This document shows positions 7,595 through 51,823 of a stretch of DNA of 64,000 bases, piece by piece. Below the pieces are notes generated by a model. The model searched no databases. It saw only the letters and a program-made list of their open reading frames with translations, and was not told where the DNA came from. A program made the position numbers and the translations under genes. Source of the stretch: Bacillus rhizoplanae (GTDB lineage: Bacteria; Bacillota; Bacilli; Bacillales; Bacillaceae_G); contig NZ_CAKJTI010000009.1 of NCBI RefSeq assembly GCF_917563915.1, positions 62,001 to 126,000 on the forward strand. Direction: 5' to 3'. The stretch's first letter is position 1; each line of letters starts with the position of its first letter.

Positions 7595-7791
7595 AACGTA
7601 AACACCTCCATATTTTGGTTATAGTATACCTCTTTTTTTATTTTTTTGCTAAAAATGATACATACCATAAGTGTTATAAGGTAAAAATAAATAAAAATCA
7701 TTCAGAATATTTTTATTTATCAATTTATCTTTCGTTTAATTTTATGTATTATTAATGTAATAGGGTATAAAGTAGAATGGAGGAGGGACGT

Positions 7792-9063
7792 ATGCGGCAA
7801 AATTTAGAAAAAATGGGTAAGCAAATTTTTTACAAGCGACTCCAACAAAAAATGACACAAGAAGAGCTTTGTCAAGGCATTTGTTCCGTCTCATATTTAA
7901 GTAAAATTGAAAATGGGCGAATTGAAGCTTCTGAGGAAATATTGCAGTTGTTATGCGCAAGATTAGAGATTGCGGTTTCGGATTTAAGAGATATTGAAGC
8001 GGAAGTGAAAGAGAAGTTAGAGGAGTGGCTAAGGGCGCTAGTTCACTTAGATAAGCATAGAGTTGAAAATTTATATAGAGAACTAGAAAGTGAAATAAAG
8101 CAAATTGTAGATTTTGAAATTGTGAATTACTATAAATTGTTATATACACGGTATTTAATTATGAAGAGAAATATACCAGCCCTTAAAGAAGAATTGGAGA
8201 GACTTAAGAAAGTTTATAAAAAATACTCCCCATTTCAGCAACTGTTATATAAGTATAGTCAAGCTTTATGCTATTGCCTACAACATAAGTGGCAAGAGGG
8301 ATTACAGTTTTTAGTTCAGACAGAACTAATGGCAAAAGAGCAAAATTATTATGAAACCGGAATTTATTATAATTTAGCACTTGCATATAGTCATTTAGAA
8401 ATTCCGCATATGGCACTTCATTTTGCTAATATTGCTATGGAAGGATTTCGAAATGAATATAAGTTCCGAAATGTGATTAATTGTCAAATCATCGTTGCGA
8501 TAAGCTATGTTGAAAAAGGACAGTATGATGAAGCATTAAAAATTTTTAAAAGTATACTGCGTGAAGCGGATTCTTTTTCAGAAAAAGATGTATTGATGTC
8601 AATCGTATTAGGTAATATTGGCAATATATATTATAGAAGAAAAAAGTATGAAGAAGCCAAAAAATATTATGTAGAAAGTTTACAATATCAAAAAGAAGAA
8701 GATGCGAACTACGTCGATACGTTATATGAAATGGCTCTTCAATGTATTTACCTTGAACAACTAGAAGAAGCAAAAGAGTGGATTGATAAGGGGATCATTT
8801 TTGCTAAGAAAGATGAAAGGTACAATACGAAATTGTACTTACTCCTTATGCTTCGTTATAAATATTTTGCAGAACCAAGTGCGTATAAACTATTTTTAGA
8901 AACAGAGGCAATTCCTTTTTTTAAAAGTGCAGGAAATATAAAAGAATTGAAGAAAGTATATGTAGAGATTGCGGAATATTTCGCTAATTGTTTGGGATTT
9001 AAAGAAAGTAATAAGTATTATAAACTAGCCATTGAGGCTCTAGAAACAATCCGGGAGGGATAA
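7792..9063 (+). CDS. nprR: NprR, RNPP-family peptide-responsive transcription factor
   Basis: A 423-residue cytosolic quorum sensor. An N-terminal HTH (about residues 5-62, QKMTQEELCQGICSVSYLSKIENGRIEAS) is followed by TPR-type helices to the end (for example YYNLALAYSHLEIPHMALHFANIAMEGF). ATG 7792 is preferred over ATG 7777 because the GGAGGAGGG ribosome site lies between them; this gives MRQNLEKMGKQIFYK and the usual NprR length. NprR activates the neutral protease gene and necrotrophic functions when bound to the re-imported peptide from NprX, encoded directly downstream. Recognition rests on sequence plus the nprX-nprA context. Confidence 0.93.
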   Translation: MRQNLEKMGKQIFYKRLQQKMTQEELCQGICSVSYLSKIENGRIEASEEILQLLCARLEIAVSDLRDIEAEVKEKLEEWLRALVHLDKHRVENLYRELESEIKQIVDFEIVNYYKLLYTRYLIMKRNIPALKEELERLKKVYKKYSPFQQLLYKYSQALCYCLQHKWQEGLQFLVQTELMAKEQNYYETGIYYNLALAYSHLEIPHMALHFANIAMEGFRNEYKFRNVINCQIIVAISYVEKGQYDEALKIFKSILREADSFSEKDVLMSIVLGNIGNIYYRRKKYEEAKKYYVESLQYQKEEDANYVDTLYEMALQCIYLEQLEEAKEWIDKGIIFAKKDERYNTKLYLLLMLRYKYFAEPSAYKLFLETEAIPFFKSAGNIKELKKVYVEIAEYFANCLGFKESNKYYKLAIEALETIREG

Positions 9064-9065
9064 GG

Positions 9066-9194
9066 ATGAAAAAAGTAGTAATCGGTATCATTGTAACAGT
9101 AGTTTCAATAGTTGTATTAGCTGATACACAATATATTAAACAACCAGATATTTTTGGACAAGAAGCAAATGAAATTGAAGTTGTAAATATATAA
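9066..9194 (+). CDS. nprX: NprX, precursor of the NprR signalling peptide (variant pherotype)
   Basis: A 42-residue ORF two bases after the nprR stop, starting with ATG 9066; the end of nprR (CGGGAGGGATAAGG) supplies the ribosome site. The N-terminus MKKVVIGIIVTVVSIVVLAD is a secretion signal. The C-terminal half holds KQPDIFG (about residues 25-31), where the best-known NprX peptide is SKPDIVG. The precursor is secreted, trimmed, re-imported by oligopeptide permease and bound by NprR. The conserved PDI-x-G core makes the assignment safe; the Lys-Gln start and Phe replace known residues and suggest a different pherotype. Confidence 0.88.
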   Translation: MKKVVIGIIVTVVSIVVLADTQYIKQPDIFGQEANEIEVVNI

Positions 9195-9298
9195 TTCAAT
9201 AGAAAAAGTTCCTATCTGTTTGAACTGCCCCCTATATAATGGTAATCGGGCTCTTACTGTCCAAAAATAGCGGGGGATCTTTAGAAACGCAAGAACTT

Positions 9299-9337
9299 AA
9301 AAGATGGTTTCGGTATTGTACCGAGGCCATCTTTTTT
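9299..9337 (+). terminator. Terminator after nprR-nprX
   Basis: AAAAGATGG...CCATCTTTTTT outer stem with an inner CGGTA/TACCG stem, followed by T residues. Confidence 0.8.
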
Positions 9338-9402
9338 AGTGTTCACTAGTAGCGAGGATGATTGTAACTTACATATAATTATCTATCTGTTCAGGAGACG
9401 CT

Positions 9403-9420
9403 TTCTCCAAAACTTGAGAA
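9403..9420 (+). promoter_or_regulatory. Candidate NprR box 1
   Basis: TTCTCCAA-AAC-TTGAGAA, an imperfect dyad, is repeated with one mismatch 154 bases further on. It lies upstream of the terminator at 9506, so it may control a short transcript rather than nprA. NprR binding is inferred from location only. Confidence 0.45.
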
Positions 9421-9505
9421 ATAAAATATAAAAATATTTTAATTTTAATATATTTATAATTAGAAGCAACCCTACATGAGTATTTAAATAGCATAGCGTA
9501 GAAGA

Positions 9506-9537
9506 AAAAACCTCTTTCCTGATGAAAAGGGGTTTTT
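9506..9537 (+). terminator. Terminator-like hairpin inside the nprX-nprA gap
   Basis: AAAAACCTCTTT (9506-9517) pairs with AAAGGGGTTTTT (9526-9537), allowing a G-T pair. It ends no visible gene. Confidence 0.65.
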
Positions 9538-9556
9538 CAAGAAATGTTCGGCAAAA

Positions 9557-9574
9557 TTCTACAAAACTTGAGAA
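9557..9574 (+). promoter_or_regulatory. Candidate NprR box 2, upstream of nprA
   Basis: TTCTACAA-AAC-TTGAGAA is a dyad 17/18 identical to 9403-9420 and lies about 95 bases before the nprA start, a fitting place for an activator site. Assignment to NprR is inference. Confidence 0.5.
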
Positions 9575-9657
9575 AGAAATTATTTTAATTTTCAGTATTT
9601 TAATAGTGAAAACTTAATGCTACTATAAAGCTACTCTTTTAAAAAAACTTTTGCTAG

Positions 9658-11355
<1,698 letters not shown>

Positions 11356-39588: not shown

Positions 39589-40095
39589 CTGTTAAATAGG
39601 CTGTATAATCGCAAAATCGCTAAGTATTTATTGGTAATTGATTTTTCAGTATCAATGCTGTGTTATTATATATTTCGTCATTCCTCTCTTGTTTCCTCAA
39701 ATATTGGTGTTATGAGTAGTGCTGTGCTTCATTATGTATTATGTACTCGTTATGTGTTTTCAATTAAGACAAATTCATATATCGTTTTTGTGTACCTATT
39801 AACTTTTATCCCGCATTAACGGGCAGTAAGACCCCCACCTCAAGATTTAGAGAGAAGCGAGGAAGATAGGTGGGGGACAACTGCCCGTAAAAGCCCGATT
39901 GGTTCAACTAACCATCAGTGAGGGATGAAAAAACCCCCACTGATGGAAGTTTCACTTTATGGATTTTATATGATATTTTAAATATTTCGTTTCAGTATTT
40001 TAAAGTAATTTCAGTAGGAGAAATTTTTTTCTTAATTATGCAGTTCGTAATGTATTATTTACGAATGCTGAAAAATGGTTAGAGGAGAAATTGCA
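39589..40095 (+). pseudogene. GtrA-family membrane protein gene interrupted by bcr1
   Basis: Reading from 39589, LLNRLYNRKIAKYLLVIDFS then VSMLCYYIFRHSS, SSAVLHYVLCTRYVFSIK and VYLLTF fit the first half of a GtrA-like protein (K-x-x-KYLLVG.FS, ...HY.LCT.YVF). No ATG is found, only CTG after GGGGGAAG. A full bcr1 (39805-39960) enters at TTTAT. Beyond it KVISVGEIFF in one frame and FFLNYAVRNVLFTNAEK in the next resemble the C-terminal GtrA helix, so there is also a frameshift. GtrA-like proteins flip or handle polyprenyl-linked sugars, which suits the glycosyltransferases downstream. Confidence 0.6.
39805..39960 (+). repeat. bcr1 element, full length, inserted in a GtrA-like gene
   Basis: 156 bp with TTTAT at both ends (39805-39809, 39956-39960) and well-kept arms. 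Position within a broken coding frame shows it was a genuine insertion. Confidence 0.88.
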
Positions 40096-40455
40096 ATGAT
40101 TACAAAATATCGTTTACATTTTTATTTGAATGCAAGACATTATGTATCTATCAATGGAAATAAGTCTAATGTACATCCACATACGTGGGAAATTACATTG
40201 CTTATTTCACACGATAGAGCTGAAGAGTTAAATTTTACTCATATTGAAGATGTCATTGGAGGATATTTAAATGAATACCAGGGAACATGCTTAAATGATT
40301 CTCCTAGATTTTCAGGGAAAAATTGTACGATGGAGCAAATTGGGAAAATCTTTTTTACAGATTTAACAGAGAATTTAAGGAAAGAGCACGTGCCATTAGA
40401 AGAATTAACAATTAGTGAAAATCCAATGCGACAATATGTTATTCAAAGAGGATAG
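40096..40455 (+). CDS. 6-pyruvoyl-tetrahydropterin synthase-like protein of the XrtG cluster
   Basis: A 119-residue T-fold protein. ATG 40096 is chosen because AGAGGAG lies 10 bases upstream; an ATG at 40075 precedes that site. The three zinc-binding histidines of the PTPS/QueD family are present: His15 in NARHYV and His27/His29 in VHPHTWEI. The catalytic Cys normally just before the HxH segment is absent (NGNKSN), so the usual dihydroneopterin triphosphate or QueD reaction is doubtful. It heads the XrtG operon, matching the PTPS-related proteins known to travel with XrtG in Gram-positives. Confidence 0.8.
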   Translation: MITKYRLHFYLNARHYVSINGNKSNVHPHTWEITLLISHDRAEELNFTHIEDVIGGYLNEYQGTCLNDSPRFSGKNCTMEQIGKIFFTDLTENLRKEHVPLEELTISENPMRQYVIQRG

Positions 40456-40470
40456 AGAGAGGAAAGTAGT

Positions 40471-42882
40471 ATGACAATTGAACGACGAAAACGAGTTTGG
40501 CTGTTTCTTTTCCAATTTTTTTTATTAGTAGCATGCGCTTTACTTATGTCATGGTATGTGAATCGTTTCGGGCGTTATCCGTGGGGTTCGGACACTTATG
40601 GACACTTATATAAAGCAAATTTACTATATGAAGAATTTCAAAAAGGAAACTGGTATGTTAATTACAGTGCTGAATGGTATAACGGATTTCAACCATTTCG
40701 ATTTTGGGCACCTTTATCTTATTATATCTTAGCTGTATTACGAATGTTTACAACGGATATGATTGGAGCTTATCAATTATTTTTTATTTTTCTTTTTATT
40801 GTAGGGGGCCTGGGCTGGTTATTGTGGGGAGTGTATACAAAACGGCAATGGCTAGCATTTTTTATTGGTATACTATGGTTCTTTGTTCCAGAAAATCTTC
40901 GCATTTTATTTGCAGAAGGAAATGTTCCCTTTTGTACTATAACATCGATATTACCATTTTTATTTTTAATATTTTACCGTGCAGTACGTGAAAAAAGAAT
41001 TCACTTATATATAATTCTTTCTATATTAATGGCAATTATAACACTAATTCATCCGATGTTAACAGCTATGGTTGGTATTTCATTCTTTTTATTTTGTCTT
41101 ATCGATTCAATTGTAAACAAAGAGATGATTCATAAGTTTATTGTTCTAATCTATGCTGCATTAGGGATTTGTTTATCTGGATTTTGGCTATTTCCAGCAC
41201 TAAATGGCGGTATTATTGGAATGGACCGAGATGCTAATTTAGAAGTAATGGCACTACACTCTTATCCATTAACTGTTTCGTTACATCCATTTTTACGTTT
41301 TAATGATATCGAAATCTATTATTTTGGATGTTCATTTGCTTTGCTTGCTTTATTTGGTTTACTCTTTGGATCCAAAAAACAGGTGACAGGATTTTCGGTT
41401 GCATTATTAATTATGATAGGCACAACAAAACTAGCTCTACCACTCTTACAGAATATGCCTCTTGTTCAAGTGTTATGGATGCGCCGCTTTACTGCAATGG
41501 CCATGGTGATGATCTTATTTTCTTTTTTATTATGGAAAAATCTTCGTAAGTCTCTTATGTGGATGTTTATTTTGTTGTTAGCTGTTGATTCAGGTGCTTC
41601 TTTTTATACAGTTGGATTTAACCGAGAGTTTCCGAAAGGACAAGCTGAAGATTTAGATGTGGCGATTTCGGCAGCATCTCAGCGTATAGCGATGTTAGAT
41701 AACTCCGAATATGGTTCTTTTCCAAGTTACTATTTATCCTATCATGGAAAACAAAATAAGGTAAAAGATCAAGTGTATGGATGGGCATGGCAAGGCGCAA
41801 CAACGGCACAAAATTTAGTACAAATTAATACAGCATTAGAACATGAATATTATGATATTTTATTTGATCGTACTCTAGAAACAGGAGCGGATACATTCGT
41901 ATTGAAGAAGAATTTTGTTAAGCACCCAGAGGAAATGAAGGAATCGGCCAAACAAGTAGGATATGAATTAATAAAGGAGACCCCTAGTAACTATATTTAT
42001 AAATATCCTATTGAGGGGAACTTTGGAACGAAAGTGCAATATGATGGGATTGCAATTGGAAAATATGCGCCCAATATTACTTATATGTTCCCGCAATTGT
42101 TAATAGGGGACAAAATGAAAATCGATGACTACACTTTTAGCGAGTTGAAAAATTATAAAGTTGTTTACATTTCAGGATTAGCTTATAAAGATAAAAAAGT
42201 AGCGGAACAGTTAGTAAAAAAATTAGCTGATTATAATATTAGAGTGGTAATTGACACAGCTGGAATGACAGAGTCATTTCTGAATGTAAATGTGCAACCA
42301 ATTTCGCTGCAAGGTGAGTATGGTGAATTATATTATAAAGATAAAAAAATAGAAACAAAACCGTTTCCTAAAAAATCAAGTGATTGGAGAACGAATGTTA
42401 TTAGTAATACAAATCATTCAGAGTCAGAGTTATATGTTAATAAACAGATTTTGAATTATATTTCTACAAGCAAGAATGACAATTTAATTTTTATGTCATT
42501 AAATATTCCTTATTATACGTTTTTAACGAAAAATGAAGATACATTGAAAGTTCTTGAGGATATTTTGCAATTAAAGGCTTACACATTACCAAAAAGAGAA
42601 GTTGTACCAGTAAGTTTAAAACGGAATCATAATGAAGTAATTGTTGATAGTGAACAAGTAAATGTACTTGTACCTGTTGCAGCAATTGATGCTTTCCAAA
42701 CAATAGAAGGTAAATATGAAAAAATGAATCAATTTATGAACGTGAAGACGAAACATGTGGAAGTACATGTTGGGTACCCATATATGATACAAGGTGTTGT
42801 TTTATCAGTGAGTGCTTTATGTATAATTTGTAGTTTATCGTATGGAATTTATAGAAGACAAAGAAGGGAGGGAGAAGCATGA
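40471..42882 (+). CDS. Large polytopic membrane protein, PTPS-related/GT-C-like
   Basis: An 803-residue protein with about 11 N-terminal membrane helices, a large extracellular region (about 390-770) and one C-terminal helix (HVGYPYMIQGVVLSVSALCIICSLSYGIY). Residues 36-46 (PWGSDTYGHLY) form an acidic loop after the first helix, as in GT-C glycosyltransferases that use polyprenyl-phosphate sugars. The family is annotated as '6-pyruvoyl-tetrahydropterin synthase related' because of its gene neighbour, not its chemistry. Its ATG 40471 follows AGAGGAAAG; the stop overlaps the xrtG start (ATGA). Confidence 0.78.
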   Translation: MTIERRKRVWLFLFQFFLLVACALLMSWYVNRFGRYPWGSDTYGHLYKANLLYEEFQKGNWYVNYSAEWYNGFQPFRFWAPLSYYILAVLRMFTTDMIGAYQLFFIFLFIVGGLGWLLWGVYTKRQWLAFFIGILWFFVPENLRILFAEGNVPFCTITSILPFLFLIFYRAVREKRIHLYIILSILMAIITLIHPMLTAMVGISFFLFCLIDSIVNKEMIHKFIVLIYAALGICLSGFWLFPALNGGIIGMDRDANLEVMALHSYPLTVSLHPFLRFNDIEIYYFGCSFALLALFGLLFGSKKQVTGFSVALLIMIGTTKLALPLLQNMPLVQVLWMRRFTAMAMVMILFSFLLWKNLRKSLMWMFILLLAVDSGASFYTVGFNREFPKGQAEDLDVAISAASQRIAMLDNSEYGSFPSYYLSYHGKQNKVKDQVYGWAWQGATTAQNLVQINTALEHEYYDILFDRTLETGADTFVLKKNFVKHPEEMKESAKQVGYELIKETPSNYIYKYPIEGNFGTKVQYDGIAIGKYAPNITYMFPQLLIGDKMKIDDYTFSELKNYKVVYISGLAYKDKKVAEQLVKKLADYNIRVVIDTAGMTESFLNVNVQPISLQGEYGELYYKDKKIETKPFPKKSSDWRTNVISNTNHSESELYVNKQILNYISTSKNDNLIFMSLNIPYYTFLTKNEDTLKVLEDILQLKAYTLPKREVVPVSLKRNHNEVIVDSEQVNVLVPVAAIDAFQTIEGKYEKMNQFMNVKTKHVEVHVGYPYMIQGVVLSVSALCIICSLSYGIYRRQRREGEA

Positions 42883-43463
42883 GTTCTATTATAACTGGTA
42901 TTTTATTAATTGCACTTTGTACTTTCGGTTATATGATGATGCAACGTATTGGATTACGTTTTTTTGCTTTTGTAGTAGGAAGCGTAGGTTTTTTTACAAT
43001 TTGTATGATGTACTTTCTACCTTATATTGAGAAATACGCAAACTTTATGAATTCTTATGTGTTAGAGTGGATTTCGAATGTATTTCCAGTATTTGATGTG
43101 CATAGTGAACTTGCATTAATAACAATTGAAACAGGAAAAGATATTGTAACCATGGTATTGAATTATGAATGCTCTGGTGGTATTGAGTTACTTGTGTTTC
43201 TTTCTCTAGTGCTTTTCTTCCCGTTTGGAAATATAAAAACAAAGGTATTATCAACTCTTTTTGGTTTATCATTTCTATTTGTAGCAAATATTTTGCGGTT
43301 GTTATTCATTATTGTTATGACAAAGATATTTGGAGCAGAAGCATACAAGCTTGTTCATATGGTATTTGCTCGTATTCTTTTTTTTGGTTTAACAGTATAT
43401 CTTTATTATGTATTATTTACACTTGTTCAAATCAGATATCAGAAAGTGGGTGAATTAAAGTGA
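42879..43463 (+). CDS. xrtG: Exosortase family protein XrtG
   Basis: A 194-residue membrane peptidase/transpeptidase with about six helices. The exosortase catalytic residues are in order: Cys98 in NYECSGGIELLVF, Arg140 in ANILRLLFI, His160 in KLVHMVFARILFFG. Exosortases cut C-terminal sorting signals and transfer the protein, usually to a lipid or glycan. ATG 42879 overlaps the previous stop, and its own stop overlaps the next start, so the three proteins are translationally coupled. The likely substrate is the product of the 44855 gene, which ends in a short TM-plus-basic tail. Confidence 0.88.
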   Translation: MSSIITGILLIALCTFGYMMMQRIGLRFFAFVVGSVGFFTICMMYFLPYIEKYANFMNSYVLEWISNVFPVFDVHSELALITIETGKDIVTMVLNYECSGGIELLVFLSLVLFFPFGNIKTKVLSTLFGLSFLFVANILRLLFIIVMTKIFGAEAYKLVHMVFARILFFGLTVYLYYVLFTLVQIRYQKVGELK

Positions 43464-44815
43464 CGATGGATGCTTTTTTACAGGAAGTCTTTTTTTGGAC
43501 TGTGTGGCTTATTATTCCGTTACTTGTTGATTTTCTCACTGGCTTTGGAAGTGCTATTGTTGTATTGCATGCTTACTTAAAAAAGAAAGAGATAGAATTA
43601 ACCTTTTTTCCTTATGTAACCATTCTTGTTCCTGTATATAATTCTGAGAAAACATTGGGAGATTGTTTGAATTCAATTGTAGCTCAACAATATCCATTGC
43701 AAAATATACAAGTTATTTTAATTGATAATGGTTCGGAAGATAGATCTTTTGAGGTATTTCAACAATTTCAAATAGAGCATCCTGTTTTAAATATTAGATA
43801 TATAAAATCAAAGCAAGGAAAAGCACAAGCTTTGAATCAAGGAATATATCTTTCACGAGGAAGATACATTTTAAATGTGGATTCAGACGGTATGCTTGAT
43901 TCAAGAGCTGTTTATAATACAGTAAGAAAATTTGAACAAGATATGAGTATTTCAGCAATGACCGGTGTTGTTATGATTAATCCTGAGTTAATTCAAGAAA
44001 ATAATAAACCCTTATTAAAATTATTACAGCGTTGTGAGTTGTTTGAGTATGTAGAAGCATTTTTAGTAGGGCGAGGCTACCAATCAAAACGTAATTCTAT
44101 TTTTACGTTATCAGGAGCGTTTTCAGCATTTCGAAAAGAGGTATTAACAAAAACACAAATGTATAATATTGAAACGCTTGGCGAAGACACGCATATGACA
44201 ACACAAATTCGTCTTATGTACAATGGAAAAGTAGCATTATGCGAAGACGCTTTTTTCTATGTAGATCCAATTGAATCTGCAGACCGTTTGTACATACAAA
44301 GGCAACGCTGGCAACGTGGCGGTATAGAAGTTACTGCTTTATTTAATAAATTCTTAAGTGAAAAAATACGAGGTAGTTTAGATGTAATTCGCTATACAAT
44401 GATTAAAGATCATACATTAATTTTTTCAAGAATGATTTGGATTTTTGCGCTAGTATACTTAATGTTTTTAGATTATCCATTATATTTAATTGTAACTGCA
44501 AATATTATTCTTTATTTTTCTTATGTAGCAAATTCGTTGTTGTTTTATGTCGTTTCAAAATTGTATTTGAAGCCACAACCACATGTAAAGAAATATATGC
44601 GTAAGCATATATATACAATATTTTTACTTCCATTTTATCGTATGTTTATCTTTTTTTGCCGCCTTGCTGGAACGATTAATGCAAAAGAAAAGAAAGCAAG
44701 CTGGGATGTGCGTGCATTAAGTGAAGAAATGCAGATGATTCGTGAGAAAATGAAGAAACAGTTTTCCTTCTATTTTAAATTGAAGAAATGGATTAATGGC
44801 AGCAGTAATAAATGA
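43460..44815 (+). CDS. XrtG-associated family 2 glycosyltransferase
   Basis: A 451-residue membrane glycosyltransferase. The GT2 core is complete: PVYNSEKTLGDCL, Asp89 in LIDNGS, DSD (141-143), GED (241-243) and QRQRW (280-284), the Q-x-x-RW motif of processive, cellulose-synthase-like enzymes. One N-terminal helix (about 12-37) and two or three C-terminal helices anchor it. The start GTG 43460 overlaps the xrtG stop (GTGA); ATG 43466 is an alternative. It presumably builds a glycan linked to the XrtG target. Confidence 0.85.
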   Translation: MTMDAFLQEVFFWTVWLIIPLLVDFLTGFGSAIVVLHAYLKKKEIELTFFPYVTILVPVYNSEKTLGDCLNSIVAQQYPLQNIQVILIDNGSEDRSFEVFQQFQIEHPVLNIRYIKSKQGKAQALNQGIYLSRGRYILNVDSDGMLDSRAVYNTVRKFEQDMSISAMTGVVMINPELIQENNKPLLKLLQRCELFEYVEAFLVGRGYQSKRNSIFTLSGAFSAFRKEVLTKTQMYNIETLGEDTHMTTQIRLMYNGKVALCEDAFFYVDPIESADRLYIQRQRWQRGGIEVTALFNKFLSEKIRGSLDVIRYTMIKDHTLIFSRMIWIFALVYLMFLDYPLYLIVTANIILYFSYVANSLLFYVVSKLYLKPQPHVKKYMRKHIYTIFLLPFYRMFIFFCRLAGTINAKEKKASWDVRALSEEMQMIREKMKKQFSFYFKLKKWINGSSNK

Positions 44816-44854
44816 TTTTATATGAGCATTATTCATTAATGGAGGAGATCTACT

Positions 44855-45589
44855 ATGAAATCTAGAAAACTACTTGCGTCACTTTTTGTCGGTATAAGTT
44901 TATTAAATATCGCACAACTACAAGTATTCGCAGAAACTAAGAAACCTCCTATTACAATTGACGGGAATTTTTCTGATTGGAATAATATGCCGTATGTTTC
45001 GGATACAAAAGGTGATGTGCCAAATGGAATGAATAATGAAGATATTACGGGTGTTAAATATTATTCTGATGGTGAATATTTATATTTGTATGTAGAAAGA
45101 CAATCGGCAGGACATTCTAACCAAGATGGCTGGACATTTCACGTGATTTTTCCAGATGCGAAACAAGGCGGGAGAAGTAACTCGGAATCCATTGAGGTAA
45201 ATGGTAAATGTCAAATGATTCAATATCATCATTCAATTGTAAATCTTATTAGTGGAAAAGGAAATCAATATTCTATAAGTGTAGACTCAGGAAAATACCA
45301 AGAACAAACCTTTTCTGTAAGTAGTGATAAGAAGGAACTAGAATTCCGAGTTCCCTTAAAAGAATTTGGATTAGATAAGCAGAAGGAGATCCGTTTTGCA
45401 TTAAAGTCAAATATTAGTGGAGAAGTGTGTCCTGCTAAAAATACAATTGACTGGGTTCCAGACAGAGATGGCTGGATTACCATTGACAATGGTCCAACAT
45501 TATGGCAATTCTCTGCAATCGTAGGATTTGGAATTGTAGGATTTGCAGCATATCGCATTCTTCGTTTTCAAAAGCGAAATAAAAACTAG
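44855..45589 (+). CDS. Firmicu-CTERM-type secreted protein, probable XrtG substrate
   Basis: A 244-residue secreted protein. The signal peptide ends near QVFA (26). The body reads ITIDGNFSDWNNMPYVSDTKGD and YYSDGEYLYLYVERQ, like beta-sandwich domains (CBM9/DOMON-like) that bind sugar or redox cofactors. The end GPTLWQFSAIVGFGIVGFAAYRILRF then QKRNKN is a short conserved motif, one membrane helix and a basic tail, the layout of the Firmicu-CTERM exosortase sorting signal. It is the only gene in the cluster with such a tail. ATG follows ATGGAGGAG. Confidence 0.78.
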   Translation: MKSRKLLASLFVGISLLNIAQLQVFAETKKPPITIDGNFSDWNNMPYVSDTKGDVPNGMNNEDITGVKYYSDGEYLYLYVERQSAGHSNQDGWTFHVIFPDAKQGGRSNSESIEVNGKCQMIQYHHSIVNLISGKGNQYSISVDSGKYQEQTFSVSSDKKELEFRVPLKEFGLDKQKEIRFALKSNISGEVCPAKNTIDWVPDRDGWITIDNGPTLWQFSAIVGFGIVGFAAYRILRFQKRNKN

Positions 45590-45616
45590 TCTAATAAACG
45601 ACTAGTTTTTATTTTA
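45584..45616 (+). terminator. Terminator of the XrtG operon
   Basis: AAAAACTAGT pairs with ACTAGTTTTTA around a 10-base loop; the gene's stop codon is in the stem. Confidence 0.78.
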
Positions 45617-45840: not shown

Positions 45841-45861
45841 ATGACTGGAATTTTTGCAAAC

Positions 45862-45913
45862 GCAATCATTATCTCTATATCCTTTAAAATATAGAAATGA
45901 TGATTGCTTTTCG
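45862..45913 (+). terminator. Long imperfect hairpin upstream of the GGDEF-EAL gene
   Basis: GCAATCATTATCTCTATAT (45862-45880) pairs with ATATAGAAATGATGATTGC, followed by TTTTCGTT. It ends no visible gene; it could be a terminator left from a lost gene or a leader attenuator for the gene at 45979. I see no cyclic-di-GMP riboswitch. Confidence 0.5.
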
Positions 45914-45978: not shown

Positions 45979-47691
45979 ATGATAGAGCAGCAAGGTCTAG
46001 TGTTACATGATTCATCACTCCAAGGAGCTATGAAAGCATTGCAAGATATAAAATTTGCTCTAGATGAATCATCAATTGTTGCTATTACTGACCGGGATGG
46101 TTATATTACATATGTAAATAATAAGTTTTGTAAAATTTCGAAATATACAAGAGAAGAACTAATTGGACAGAGTCATCGCATTTTAAATTCTGGATATCAT
46201 CCAAAGCCTTTTTTTAAGCAACTATGGAAACGTATTTTAAGTGGGAAAGTTTGGCGTGGAGAAATTTGTAATAAGGCAAAAGATGGGTCCTATTATTGGG
46301 TAAACACTACCATTGTTCCTTTTCTAGATGATAGCGGGGAACCATATCAATTTGTTTCCATTCGAAACGAGGTAACAGGACGCAAAGAGATAGAGCAACG
46401 GTTAAGGGTGAGTGAAAAACGTTATCGTAAATTAGCATATCATGATGTGTTAACAGGTTTGCCAAATCGTTTACAATTAATGGCATTAGCAAATAAGCGC
46501 GTAGAAGAAAAAACACCATTTAGTCTCATTTATTTTGATTTAGATCGTTTTAAATTGGTAAATGATACATTAGGACACGCGATAGGGGATTTATTACTAG
46601 AAGAAGTGGCATCACGCCTCTACTATGTATTAAGTGATATGGAAGTGCTTTCAAGGTTTGGCGGGGATGAATTTGTCTTATTAACGGAGAAGAATACATT
46701 AAAAGATTTACAACAGTTAGCAGGTTCGATTCTTTCTCGTTTTCAGGAACCGTTCATATTAGATGGAAATGAAGCGTATGTTTCTGCTAGCTTGGGAGTA
46801 TGTTCATATCCAAAAGATGGTGAAGATATAGAGTCTTTATTAAAAAATGCAGATTTATCTATGTATAGTGCGAAAGAGCAAGGGAGAAACTCCGTTTGTT
46901 ATTTTACAAATGATTTACGAGCAAAAACGCATCGAAAAATGGAAGTCGAACTTGTATTGCAAAAGGCCATTCATGACGAAGAATTAAAAGTAGTGATGCA
47001 GCCAATTATTGATTTACAAACAAAGCAATACTCGGGGGTAGAGGCATTGCTGCGTTGTTATACGGAAGAAGGTCCGATTTCTCCTTCTGAATTTATTCCA
47101 ATTGCAGAAGAATGTGGATTGATTTCACAATTAGGAGATTGGGTGTTAGAACGATCATGTAGAATATTTAAAACATTACCGGAATATACAGAAGGTTTGC
47201 GATTATCTGTAAATATATCTATTCAACAAATTATGCAAAATCGTTTTATACCTGTTTTGCGTAGTATATTAGCACGTACTTCATTTTCACCAAATCGATT
47301 AATTTTAGAGATTACTGAGAGTGTTGCGGTAAGGCACTTTGAGTATATTATTGCTGCCCTTCAAGAATTAAGAAATATGGGAATTTTAATTGCACTAGAT
47401 GATTTTGGAACAGGGTATTCATCGTTATATTATTTAAAACAGTTACCACTTGATATTGTAAAGATTGATCGCAATTTTATTCAAGAATTTCATCATATTC
47501 AGGCACAACCTGAAAGAACAATTGTAAAATCGGTTATTGACATTGCACATAGTTTAAATATGAAGGTTGTTGCAGAAGGGGTAGAAACTGTTGAACAAGA
47601 AACGTTACTACAATCAATGGGATGTGACTATGTACAAGGATTTTATTATGCGAAACCGTTAACAGTATCAGAATTAAAAAATAAATTTTAA
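45979..47691 (+). CDS. PAS-GGDEF-EAL cyclic-di-GMP signalling protein
   Basis: A 570-residue protein without clear membrane helices. A PAS domain (about 25-140; ITDRDGYITYVNNKFCKISKY, with PAC end YQFVSIRNEVTGRKE) is followed by GGDEF (site 228-232 intact, in RFGGDEFVLL) and EAL (Glu355-Ala356-Leu357, with DDFGTGYSSLYYLKQLP). Both catalytic motifs look functional, so it may make and degrade c-di-GMP with PAS input, though one activity often dominates. ATG 45979 follows AAGGAGAGG. It is a single gene. Confidence 0.92.
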   Translation: MIEQQGLVLHDSSLQGAMKALQDIKFALDESSIVAITDRDGYITYVNNKFCKISKYTREELIGQSHRILNSGYHPKPFFKQLWKRILSGKVWRGEICNKAKDGSYYWVNTTIVPFLDDSGEPYQFVSIRNEVTGRKEIEQRLRVSEKRYRKLAYHDVLTGLPNRLQLMALANKRVEEKTPFSLIYFDLDRFKLVNDTLGHAIGDLLLEEVASRLYYVLSDMEVLSRFGGDEFVLLTEKNTLKDLQQLAGSILSRFQEPFILDGNEAYVSASLGVCSYPKDGEDIESLLKNADLSMYSAKEQGRNSVCYFTNDLRAKTHRKMEVELVLQKAIHDEELKVVMQPIIDLQTKQYSGVEALLRCYTEEGPISPSEFIPIAEECGLISQLGDWVLERSCRIFKTLPEYTEGLRLSVNISIQQIMQNRFIPVLRSILARTSFSPNRLILEITESVAVRHFEYIIAALQELRNMGILIALDDFGTGYSSLYYLKQLPLDIVKIDRNFIQEFHHIQAQPERTIVKSVIDIAHSLNMKVVAEGVETVEQETLLQSMGCDYVQGFYYAKPLTVSELKNKF

Positions 47692-49864: not shown

Positions 49865-51823
49865 ATGGAAAATAGGAAGTCGGCTAGATCTCTTGTTGGG
49901 GGGATAATGTTTGTATGTGTTGTCCTTTTTAACTTTTCAAAATCAACATATGCTTATATTCCTTCTGAAAATCAAATTGTAAAGAGCAAACCAAATCATT
50001 ATGGAACTGAGGGAAATCAACCAGCATATGATATTTGGGGACAAACGATTTCGCAAAAAAAGGCGAATGAGTTGTTAAAAACGAAAGAAGGCAAAGCTTT
50101 ATTATCACCACAAAACGGAGCAGTGAAAATTGACAGAGAGTTATTAAAATTGGGGAGAGAGTCTTTTTATGAAGAAACATTTGGAAATGAAGTGTTTCTT
50201 ACAGACATAATGGGTATTTTAAACGGTGCGTTAACTTTGGAAAATATTAAAAAAGCAATTTACGACTTGCATGGAAAAGGGACAACAAATTTACGTGTCG
50301 AACTGGCGAAAACTGTGAAAATAGGAGATAAAACGTTTGAAAAAGGAACAAAGGTTGATACTGGTTTAGATGTTTCAAGAGGTTCTAATGAAGTGTTAGG
50401 GATGCCTATTATTAAGTCTGAAGGAAGAGAGAAGATAGGAGTAAGCTGTGCTGCATGCCACGCAACGGTAACAAGAGATACAAAAAAAGTTATTGAAGGT
50501 GCTGCAAATAATGATTTTAATGGCGGTCTCATTTTAGCACTAGGGACAAATTCAGCAGCTTATTTTTCTCGTGCAGAAATTAAGTCGTTACAAGACTATA
50601 TAAAAGATTTAGGGCGAACAGTAGTAACCTCTGATGGAAAAAAAGCTCCGCTTCCTGATCCAGGGATGATAGAGGAGACTGTAGATCGTACTTTATTAAA
50701 ATGGCCAAGAGGAAACTTTGATGCGAGTAGTGATTTGGTGAATAATCCAACACAAATTCCAGATTCTTTTACATTTGGAGATCATCCTTATGGGTGGAAT
50801 GGGTTTGCACAAGCTGGTCCGTTTAAAGGACTAAGTGTAATTAATAGTGCTGTAAATATTCAAGGATCAGATTTAACGACATTAGCACATGCTAGTCCAT
50901 TCCTTTTCAAAATCGACAAGGAAGTTTATTTAGGAACAATGTTACAAAATGCAGCGAATCTAAAATATCGATATGATCCTAAAAGTGGAAAGAAACCATC
51001 TGAGTTTTTTGCTTCAGTAGACCCTACTCCAGGAGTTCCAGGAGTAAATGAGTTAATTGCGCTTCCGACATTTCCAAGGCCTTCTTTAATCTCTCCTAAT
51101 GGTTTATTATCAAGTTCTCCTGGCTATCGAGTCATGGAGCAAAATAATGGAATGTCTGCATTACAAAATACATTTGTTTCCCCTAAACCACCATTATCTG
51201 TTGATGATAAGACGATGAAAAAAGGGAAGAACGTTTTTGCACGTGCAGGCTGTATTACTTGTCATGCGGGACAAACCTACACAAATAATCGAATTATTCC
51301 AGTTAACGAAATTAAGACAGAGCCATCAAGGGCAAAATCATTTGAAGCAATAGGTAAAAACTTAGCAGAGCCTATTATTTATTCACCGGATACATCTGTA
51401 CCTGTACCAAAAGGAGCAAAATTGTTAAAAGTTCCAGCCTATTCATTAGATAAAGAGAAGATTAACTTAGCATATATGTTAAATAGTTCACCTGGTGGTT
51501 ACAAAGTTCCAAGCTTGTTAGGGCTTTATTGGGGAGCGCCGTATTTACATGATGGAGGTGTTGCGGTTGGCCAAAACGTGGAGAGTGAACTAGGTATGAC
51601 AGGAACCGTATCAAAAGGAATTGAGCCTAATCCGTTTAACAGCTTACGAGCATTAATTGACCAAAACTTGAGAAGAAAAGTAATCGAGGCAAACAAAAAT
51701 TCAAAGGATTTACAAGACGCACATATTACGGGGGAAGGACATGAATATTGGGTAGATTCTTCTACAGGTTTTTCAAAGCAAGAGCAAGATGCGTTAATCA
51801 ACTATTTACTCACATTAGAATAA
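49865..51823 (+). CDS. Secreted di-heme c-type protein (RoxA/MauG-like)
   Basis: A 652-residue protein with an N-terminal signal (about 10-31, LVGGIMFVCVVLFNFSKSTYAY). Two c-heme sites are visible, CAACH at 195-199 and CITCH at 463-467, with the second in a typical cytochrome c domain (KGKNVFARAGCITCHAGQTYTNN). Size and two-heme layout resemble the cytochrome c peroxidase/MauG/RoxA superfamily, large oxidases working outside the membrane; YLHDGGVAVG near 560 is the conserved tail motif of this group. Substrate unknown. ATG 49865 follows ATGGAGGAAAG. It stands alone. Confidence 0.75.
   Translation: MENRKSARSLVGGIMFVCVVLFNFSKSTYAYIPSENQIVKSKPNHYGTEGNQPAYDIWGQTISQKKANELLKTKEGKALLSPQNGAVKIDRELLKLGRESFYEETFGNEVFLTDIMGILNGALTLENIKKAIYDLHGKGTTNLRVELAKTVKIGDKTFEKGTKVDTGLDVSRGSNEVLGMPIIKSEGREKIGVSCAACHATVTRDTKKVIEGAANNDFNGGLILALGTNSAAYFSRAEIKSLQDYIKDLGRTVVTSDGKKAPLPDPGMIEETVDRTLLKWPRGNFDASSDLVNNPTQIPDSFTFGDHPYGWNGFAQAGPFKGLSVINSAVNIQGSDLTTLAHASPFLFKIDKEVYLGTMLQNAANLKYRYDPKSGKKPSEFFASVDPTPGVPGVNELIALPTFPRPSLISPNGLLSSSPGYRVMEQNNGMSALQNTFVSPKPPLSVDDKTMKKGKNVFARAGCITCHAGQTYTNNRIIPVNEIKTEPSRAKSFEAIGKNLAEPIIYSPDTSVPVPKGAKLLKVPAYSLDKEKINLAYMLNSSPGGYKVPSLLGLYWGAPYLHDGGVAVGQNVESELGMTGTVSKGIEPNPFNSLRALIDQNLRRKVIEANKNSKDLQDAHITGEGHEYWVDSSTGFSKQEQDALINYLLTLE

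What the first reader, a model, noticed from the sequence alone, without database searches (positions are those of the whole stretch)
39589..45589. Complete exosortase (XrtG) gene set in a Gram-positive, with a single visible sorting substrate
Seen: an exosortase with Cys98/Arg140/His160, a coupled processive-type GT2 with D, DSD, ED and QxxRW motifs, an 803-residue GT-C-like membrane protein, a PTPS-like protein and one secreted protein ending in a short motif, membrane helix and basic tail (Firmicu-CTERM layout). Starts and stops overlap (ATGA, GTGA). Known: XrtG, its glycosyltransferase and PTPS-related partners co-occur in Firmicutes, but the product they make is, as far as I know, undescribed. 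Inference: the cluster builds a glycan on a lipid, and XrtG cleaves the 44855 product at its C-terminal tail and joins it to that glycan.
Basis: partly seen in the sequence, partly recalled or inferred. Interest (0 to 1): 0.9.

Follow-up and report, generated by a model that had tools for sequence, protein, structure and literature searches.

The report
XrtG exosortase and polysaccharide-synthase gene cluster
A Gram-positive bacterium carries a known but untested gene set that probably makes a surface polysaccharide and fixes one sugar-binding-like protein in the cell envelope; the set is already named in databases, but comparison with relatives gives new, testable clues to how it works.

Summary
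The genes are real and correctly described. XrtG, its glycosyltransferase, the PTPS-like protein and the tailed protein each pass the NCBIfam cut-off of an already named set, and a 2026 paper calls the L. [quoted passage not shown] So this is a new member of a known, functionally untested kind. New here: (1) the tailed protein is predicted to be a CBM9/CBM74-like, carbohydrate-binding-type sandwich; (2) one homologue (Sarcina ventriculi) has lost Cys, Arg and His and has no detected tailed protein, yet keeps an intact xrtG frame beside the glycosyltransferase, which ties catalysis to the tail and suggests a second, structural role; (3) 69 of 84 loci carry a Cache sensor with a degenerate GGDEF domain, in 6 fused to a cluster enzyme. 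The window and its nearest relatives lack that sensor; a PAS-GGDEF-EAL gene lies next door behind a terminator-like hairpin, so that link is adjacency only. The window's GtrA-like gene is truncated. Transfer of the protein to a glycan remains inference.

The parts
39631..39819 (+). truncated GtrA-like ORF (62 codons; N-terminal half of a GtrA-like membrane protein)
   Evidence: Pfam PF04138 E=1.5e-4, below gathering score; 34% identity over 58 aa to the intact L004 GtrA-like protein, E=2e-10 for that single comparison; the stretch after the repeat gave no significant match
39808..39946 (.). hairpin-rich intergenic repeat in which the GtrA-like frame ends (bcr1-like: name recalled, not tested)
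   Evidence: inverted repeats; similar DNA (82.6%) in a Pseudalkalibacillus plasmid with 3 places
40075..40455 (+). PTPS-like protein (probable start 40096); zinc-ligand-type His kept
   Evidence: TIGR03112 114.7 bits; H22, H36, E115, R119 invariant and H34 in 11 of 12 sequences
40471..42882 (+). 803-aa GT-C-like membrane protein, PTPS_related family
   Evidence: PF10131 E=2.7e-175
42879..43463 (+). exosortase XrtG, C98/R140/H160
   Evidence: TIGR03110 144.2 bits; conservation 95 of 96
43460..44815 (+). XrtG-associated processive-type family 2 glycosyltransferase
   Evidence: TIGR03111 560.9 bits; PgaC_IcaA 139.7 bits
44855..45589 (+). Firmicu-CTERM protein: signal helix 2-20, CBM9/CBM74-like sandwich about 30-212, tail
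   Evidence: TIGR04145 58.2 bits; model and fold comparison
45488..45583 (+). sorting tail: NGPT motif (212-215) and membrane helix 216-243, basic end
   Evidence: 92 distinct tails listed; T215 90% or more conserved in A5; model helix 216-243
45577..45614 (.). perfect 15-bp inverted repeat with T-rich 3' arm at the end of the CTERM gene (terminator-like)
   Evidence: not flagged by the terminator scan, probably because the T run lies inside the 3' arm
45979..47691 (+). PAS-GGDEF-EAL protein with intact GGDEF, EAL and DDFGTG motifs; neighbour, membership in the system doubtful
   Evidence: motifs

Best explanation
An XrtG-type exosortase locus. Shown: the gene set, its catalytic residues, and the tight pairing of XrtG with one tailed protein in relatives. 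Inferred: the GT2 polymerises and exports a polysaccharide at the membrane, with XrtG as a membrane partner beside it; the GT-C-like protein adds further sugars on the outer face from a lipid-linked donor. The 44855 protein is secreted, held by its C-terminal helix, cut by XrtG near the NGPT motif through the Cys/Arg/His site, and its new C-terminus is passed to an envelope acceptor (lipid or the nascent glycan). Its predicted carbohydrate-binding-type domain then holds or organises the polymer at the cell surface. The role of the PTPS-like protein is unknown; it is probably a zinc protein and not a pterin synthase.
Confidence: 0.5

Rival explanations
1. XrtG only cuts the tail and releases or retains the protein (a protease); nothing is joined to a glycan, and the polysaccharide and the protein meet only through sugar binding.
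For: The substrate looks like a carbohydrate-binding module, so it needs no covalent bond to hold the glycan; no call gives evidence of an acceptor.
Against: XrtG is beside GT2 in 84 of 84 loci (selected by GT2); exosortase relatives are thought to be transpeptidases (recalled).
Confidence: 0.25
2. The glycosyltransferases glycosylate the 44855 protein itself (a dedicated glycoprotein) instead of making a free polymer.
For: GT-C fold proteins often glycosylate surface polymers or proteins (recalled); one tail-bearing protein in each of 15 of 15 genomes.
Against: Sarcina ventriculi keeps GT2, PTPS-like and an inactive XrtG without a detected tailed protein; GT2 has processive-type motifs.
Confidence: 0.15
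3. In this window the system is a decaying remnant.
For: GtrA-like gene truncated beside a repeat; the DPM-like gene that L004 and L006 have between GT2 and the tailed gene is absent; among 84 loci GtrA occurs without a separate DPM only in the window.
Against: The five main genes are uninterrupted with conserved motifs and overlapping starts and stops; a separate GtrA or DPM is lacking in 74 and 70 of 84 loci anyway.
Confidence: 0.1
4. The PAS-GGDEF-EAL neighbour (45979) controls this cluster through c-di-GMP.
For: Relatives carry a degenerate-GGDEF sensor in 69 of 84 loci; GGDEF and EAL genes stand inside two Lactobacillales clusters (L002, L108).
Against: A perfect inverted repeat with a T-rich arm ends the CTERM gene and 389 bp separate the two genes; of the 13 sampled Lactobacillales loci, 11 show no GGDEF or EAL gene in the stretch fetched; no near relative of the window was found, so whether the neighbour occurs without xrtG is unknown.
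Confidence: 0.3

Closest known systems
XrtG / Firmicu-CTERM system (NCBIfam TIGR03110, TIGR03111, TIGR03112, TIGR04145; 'complete Exosortase G (XrtG) system' in L. plantarum, PMC12854382, passages seen)
   Same: XrtG, GT2, PTPS-like and tailed protein all above the curated cut-offs
   Different: The window has a PF10131 GT-C-like protein where the 13 Lactobacillales loci show TIGR03766-type proteins in 12; CTERM gene last; truncated GtrA; divergent tail
PgaC/IcaA-type and BcsA-type c-di-GMP-controlled polysaccharide synthases
   Same: GT2 with processive-type motifs; GGDEF-type partners in 69 of 84 loci
   Different: Far below the PgaC cut-off (139.7 against 422.3 bits); exosortase partner; PgaD and BcsB not looked for
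gts operon of Lactobacillus acidophilus (PMC6123363, passages seen)
   Same: GT2 next to c-di-GMP genes, exopolysaccharide and co-aggregation phenotype
   Different: The main text does not contain the word exosortase; relation of its GT2 to TIGR03111 not tested
CsbB/GtcA/YfhO three-part glycosylation (recalled)
   Same: DPM-like GT2, GtrA and GT-C occur together in some XrtG clusters
   Different: In the window GtrA is truncated and DPM absent

Membership tests
XrtG system | exosortase over TIGR03110 cut-off with Cys/Arg/His | tested here: met
   144.2 against 102.75 bits; C98, R140, H160
XrtG system | TIGR03111 glycosyltransferase next to it | tested here: met
   560.9 bits, 4-bp overlap
XrtG system | TIGR03112 PTPS-related protein in the cluster | tested here: met
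   114.7 bits
XrtG system | one Firmicu-CTERM protein per genome | tested here: inconclusive
   one in the cluster (58.2 against 50 bits); whole genome not held
XrtG system | removal of the tail by XrtG | not testable with these tools
   needs a mutant
6-pyruvoyl tetrahydropterin synthase / QueD | score over the QueD cut-off | tested here: not met
   26.8 against 89.25 bits; the wider Pfam PTPS family is met (55.3 against 22.4 bits)
6-pyruvoyl tetrahydropterin synthase / QueD | catalytic Cys (position recalled) | tested here: not met
   no Cys between H22 and H34 in any of 12 aligned sequences
PgaC/IcaA PNAG synthase | score over TIGR03937 cut-off | tested here: not met
   139.7 against 422.3 bits
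CBM9-type carbohydrate-binding module | fold | tested here: inconclusive
Diguanylate cyclase (conserved ORF after GT2 in relatives) | GGDEF signature | tested here: not met
   20 cluster proteins of this kind printed (and L052, an EAL protein of another kind), none with the signature; nearest variants by eye SDNKF, NDDEF, SGSEF, GSSEF

The most novel reading that the evidence does not exclude
The XrtG system is a signal-gated polysaccharide machine: XrtG is a structural subunit of the GT2 synthase that also carries a transpeptidase site for one carbohydrate-binding-type protein, and an outside-facing Cache sensor with a degenerate GGDEF domain (or a c-di-GMP enzyme nearby) switches the synthase. 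The exosortase would thus couple making a polymer to planting its own anchor protein.
Probability: 0.35. Interest if true: 0.78.

Novelty: new member of a known kind. Interest (0 to 1): 0.5.

Why it matters
XrtG is an exosortase of Gram-positive bacteria, including probiotic lactobacilli, and my searches listed no paper that visibly tests its function. The comparison turns an annotation into testable statements: the substrate is a sugar-binding-type protein, the catalytic residues serve that substrate, the protein scaffold serves the synthase, and in many relatives a sensor with a GGDEF-like domain belongs to the synthase.

Tried and rejected
Rfam over the window: no match at gathering threshold, so no c-di-GMP riboswitch was seen. 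Plasmids near-match of 36-60 kb: none. Viral contigs with the GT2 alignment: 15 loci, with weak or short GT2 similarity (E from 1e-17 to 3e-5); with the GGDEF-EAL protein: one locus at 31%: no phage link. Solved-structure search with XrtG profile A7: no match up to E=1. GtrA remnant after the repeat: considered by eye, rejected because E=2.4. Direct HHalign of the Cache-protein C-terminus to genuine GGDEF domains is weak (7% probability); the claim rests on full-length comparison (92.5%), the chain through intermediates (96.3% and 99.6%) and the model. The fused segments of L036 and L041 match the Cache-protein profile (98.1%) but not the GGDEF intermediates (12.7%) or GGDEF domains (0.3%). 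RxxD inhibitory site: not seen by eye in L028, L031, L034 and L051, so c-di-GMP binding by this protein is not claimed. The EAL proteins of L002 and L108 read EVLLR and ELLLR with altered DDFGTG, so they may be receptors and not enzymes. Idea that the Sarcina GT2 makes its cellulose: not pursued; PMC7710045 (passages) reports cellulose in that species and does not contain the word exosortase. The Sas6 and CBM9 rows come from a second look at Foldseek's own list, so other folds are not excluded.

Full report
What is there. Five genes on the + strand from 40075 to 45589 encode a PTPS-like protein, an 803-residue GT-C-like membrane protein, the exosortase XrtG, a family 2 glycosyltransferase and a secreted protein with a C-terminal sorting tail. 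Four score above the NCBIfam cut-offs for TIGR03112, TIGR03110, TIGR03111 and TIGR04145; the 803-residue protein is Pfam PF10131 with E=2.7e-175. No whole genome is held for the window. I recall features of the Bacillus cereus group (GC of roughly 30-41% per kb, and the repeat), but this was not tested: none of 299 sampled Bacilli genomes was close.

Known or not. The set is already named. [quoted passage not shown] plantarum, with a Firmicu-CTERM protein, Xrt and two associated glycosyltransferases. Searches for XrtG, Firmicu-CTERM, exosortase with Firmicutes and Bacillus, exosortase with plantarum, exosortase with c-di-GMP, and exosortase with 6-pyruvoyl and glycosyltransferase listed no paper whose title or abstract start shows a test of XrtG function.

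Substrate pairing. In 250 Lachnospiraceae genomes, XrtG passes the cut-off in 15 and the Firmicu-CTERM model matches at E up to 0.001 in 16, of which 14 pass its cut-off: the 15 xrtG genomes (G385 below cut-off) and one other (G438, E=3.7e-4, below cut-off). In each of the 15, one protein reaches the tail end of the profile and lies on the xrtG contig within 2.6 kb. Fisher p=3.4e-23, not corrected for kinship. In 299 Bacilli genomes XrtG passes in 2 (4 at E up to 0.001) and the CTERM model in 1, an xrtG genome; the matches in 25 other genomes are below cut-off and end at profile position 145 or earlier, that is, the sandwich domain without the tail. The second xrtG genome, G201, has a divergent tailed protein, the same as in L001, that the model misses (seen by eye). 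In 295 Lactobacillales genomes XrtG passes in 11 (12 at E up to 0.001); their 13 loci were fetched, and 13 of 13 carry a CTERM protein by my own profile, within about 6 kb of xrtG.

The tail. In 92 distinct tails the usual motif is G-x-[S/P]-[T/S]-[G/P], then a membrane helix and K/R (read by eye; L079 has no tail). The window has NGPT-L; T215 is nearly invariant in a 23-sequence alignment, though L005 has Ser and L128 has Ile there.

A natural dissection. L008 (Sarcina ventriculi) encodes a 194-residue XrtG that still passes TIGR03110 (111.2 bits) but has Ala, Lys and Phe at the three catalytic positions and has lost the ECSGxIE motif. Its genome has no TIGR04145 match, and tblastn with the tailed protein of a relative finds nothing in the 21-kb locus, while the GT2 and PTPS-like genes are intact. 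The relative G827 (L128) has PTPS, active-type XrtG, GT2 and a tailed protein in a row. The simplest reading is that the catalytic site serves the tailed protein and that XrtG has another, non-catalytic role next to GT2. Limits: it is one event, and the TIGR04145 model can miss divergent members (it misses L001's, and scores L128's at 42.1 bits).

Core and accessory parts. In 84 loci gathered by GT2 similarity (80 from genome contigs, 3 from plasmids, and the window), XrtG is present in 84 and the PTPS domain in 83; with more than 6 kb on both sides, 61 of 61 have both and 59 of 61 the tailed protein. PF10131-type proteins are in 73 of 84; in the 13 Lactobacillales loci a TIGR03766-type protein is found in 12 and PF10131-type in none. 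A separate GtrA-like ORF occurs in 10 and a DPM-like glycosyltransferase in 14; 9 of the 10 GtrA loci also have DPM (p=5.1e-8, kinship not corrected), and the exception is the window. Nine of ten further ORFs checked by Pfam (340-367 residues) hold both domains in one protein. Two of the nearest relatives, L004 and L006, read GtrA, PTPS, GT-C, XrtG, GT2, DPM, CTERM; in L004 the GT-C gene appears as two ORFs. In the window GtrA is cut to 62 codons beside a hairpin-rich repeat and DPM is absent.

c-di-GMP genes. GGDEF and EAL genes stand in the clusters of the Lactococcus plasmid L002 and of L108, where the GGDEF gene is the only match in a 3.8-Mb genome (G765); L102 has a GGDEF gene about 3 kb beyond its cluster, and the other 11 of 13 Lactobacillales loci show neither. 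In the Lactobacillales draw of 285, 129 genomes have a GGDEF match: 10 of 10 xrtG genomes that I find in its list against 119 of 275 others (p=3.0e-4). I assume from the handles that this draw is a subset of the 295 and that the eleventh xrtG genome, G822, was not drawn (its locus L102 does have a GGDEF gene); kinship is not corrected for. In the window the PAS-GGDEF-EAL gene is intact by motif but separated by 389 bp and a terminator-like inverted repeat, so the link there is adjacency only.

Verdict. A real, complete-looking member of a known system. The mechanism of cleavage and transfer is unproven. The new, bold reading is a sensor-gated synthase in which XrtG has two roles.

Noticed in passing
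L008:9393-9977: XrtG homologue without the catalytic residues still passes the TIGR03110 cut-off, so automatic annotation would call it an exosortase.
   Followed up: yes
L049:9986-12829, L062:2363-5272, L066:9965-12889, L069:9992-12907: The XrtG-associated GT2 is fused to a sulfatase-superfamily domain (perhaps phosphoglycerol-transferase-like, recalled), hinting at decoration of the polymer.
   Followed up: partly
L026:591-1811: Tailed protein and XrtG in one open reading frame in one metagenome-assembled genome; may be an assembly artefact.
   Followed up: no
L079:8686-9282: Oenococcus CTERM gene stops just before the tail and its TIGR03766-type gene is in two pieces, suggesting decay.
   Followed up: no
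L031:14749-16593 and L051:14782-16578: The cluster's degenerate GGDEF protein also carries an HD domain (L031 by Pfam HD_5; L051 by eye), HD-GYP-looking.
   Followed up: partly
window 49865-51823: Secreted-looking protein with two CxxCH haem-type motifs, visible in the translation.
   Followed up: no
window 7777-11355: HTH-TPR regulator gene followed on the same strand by a thermolysin-type metalloprotease gene (Pfam M4), resembling the NprR-NprA pair (recalled).
   Followed up: no
window 45858-45911: 23-nt inverted repeat (87%) upstream of the PAS-GGDEF-EAL gene, of unknown role.
   Followed up: no
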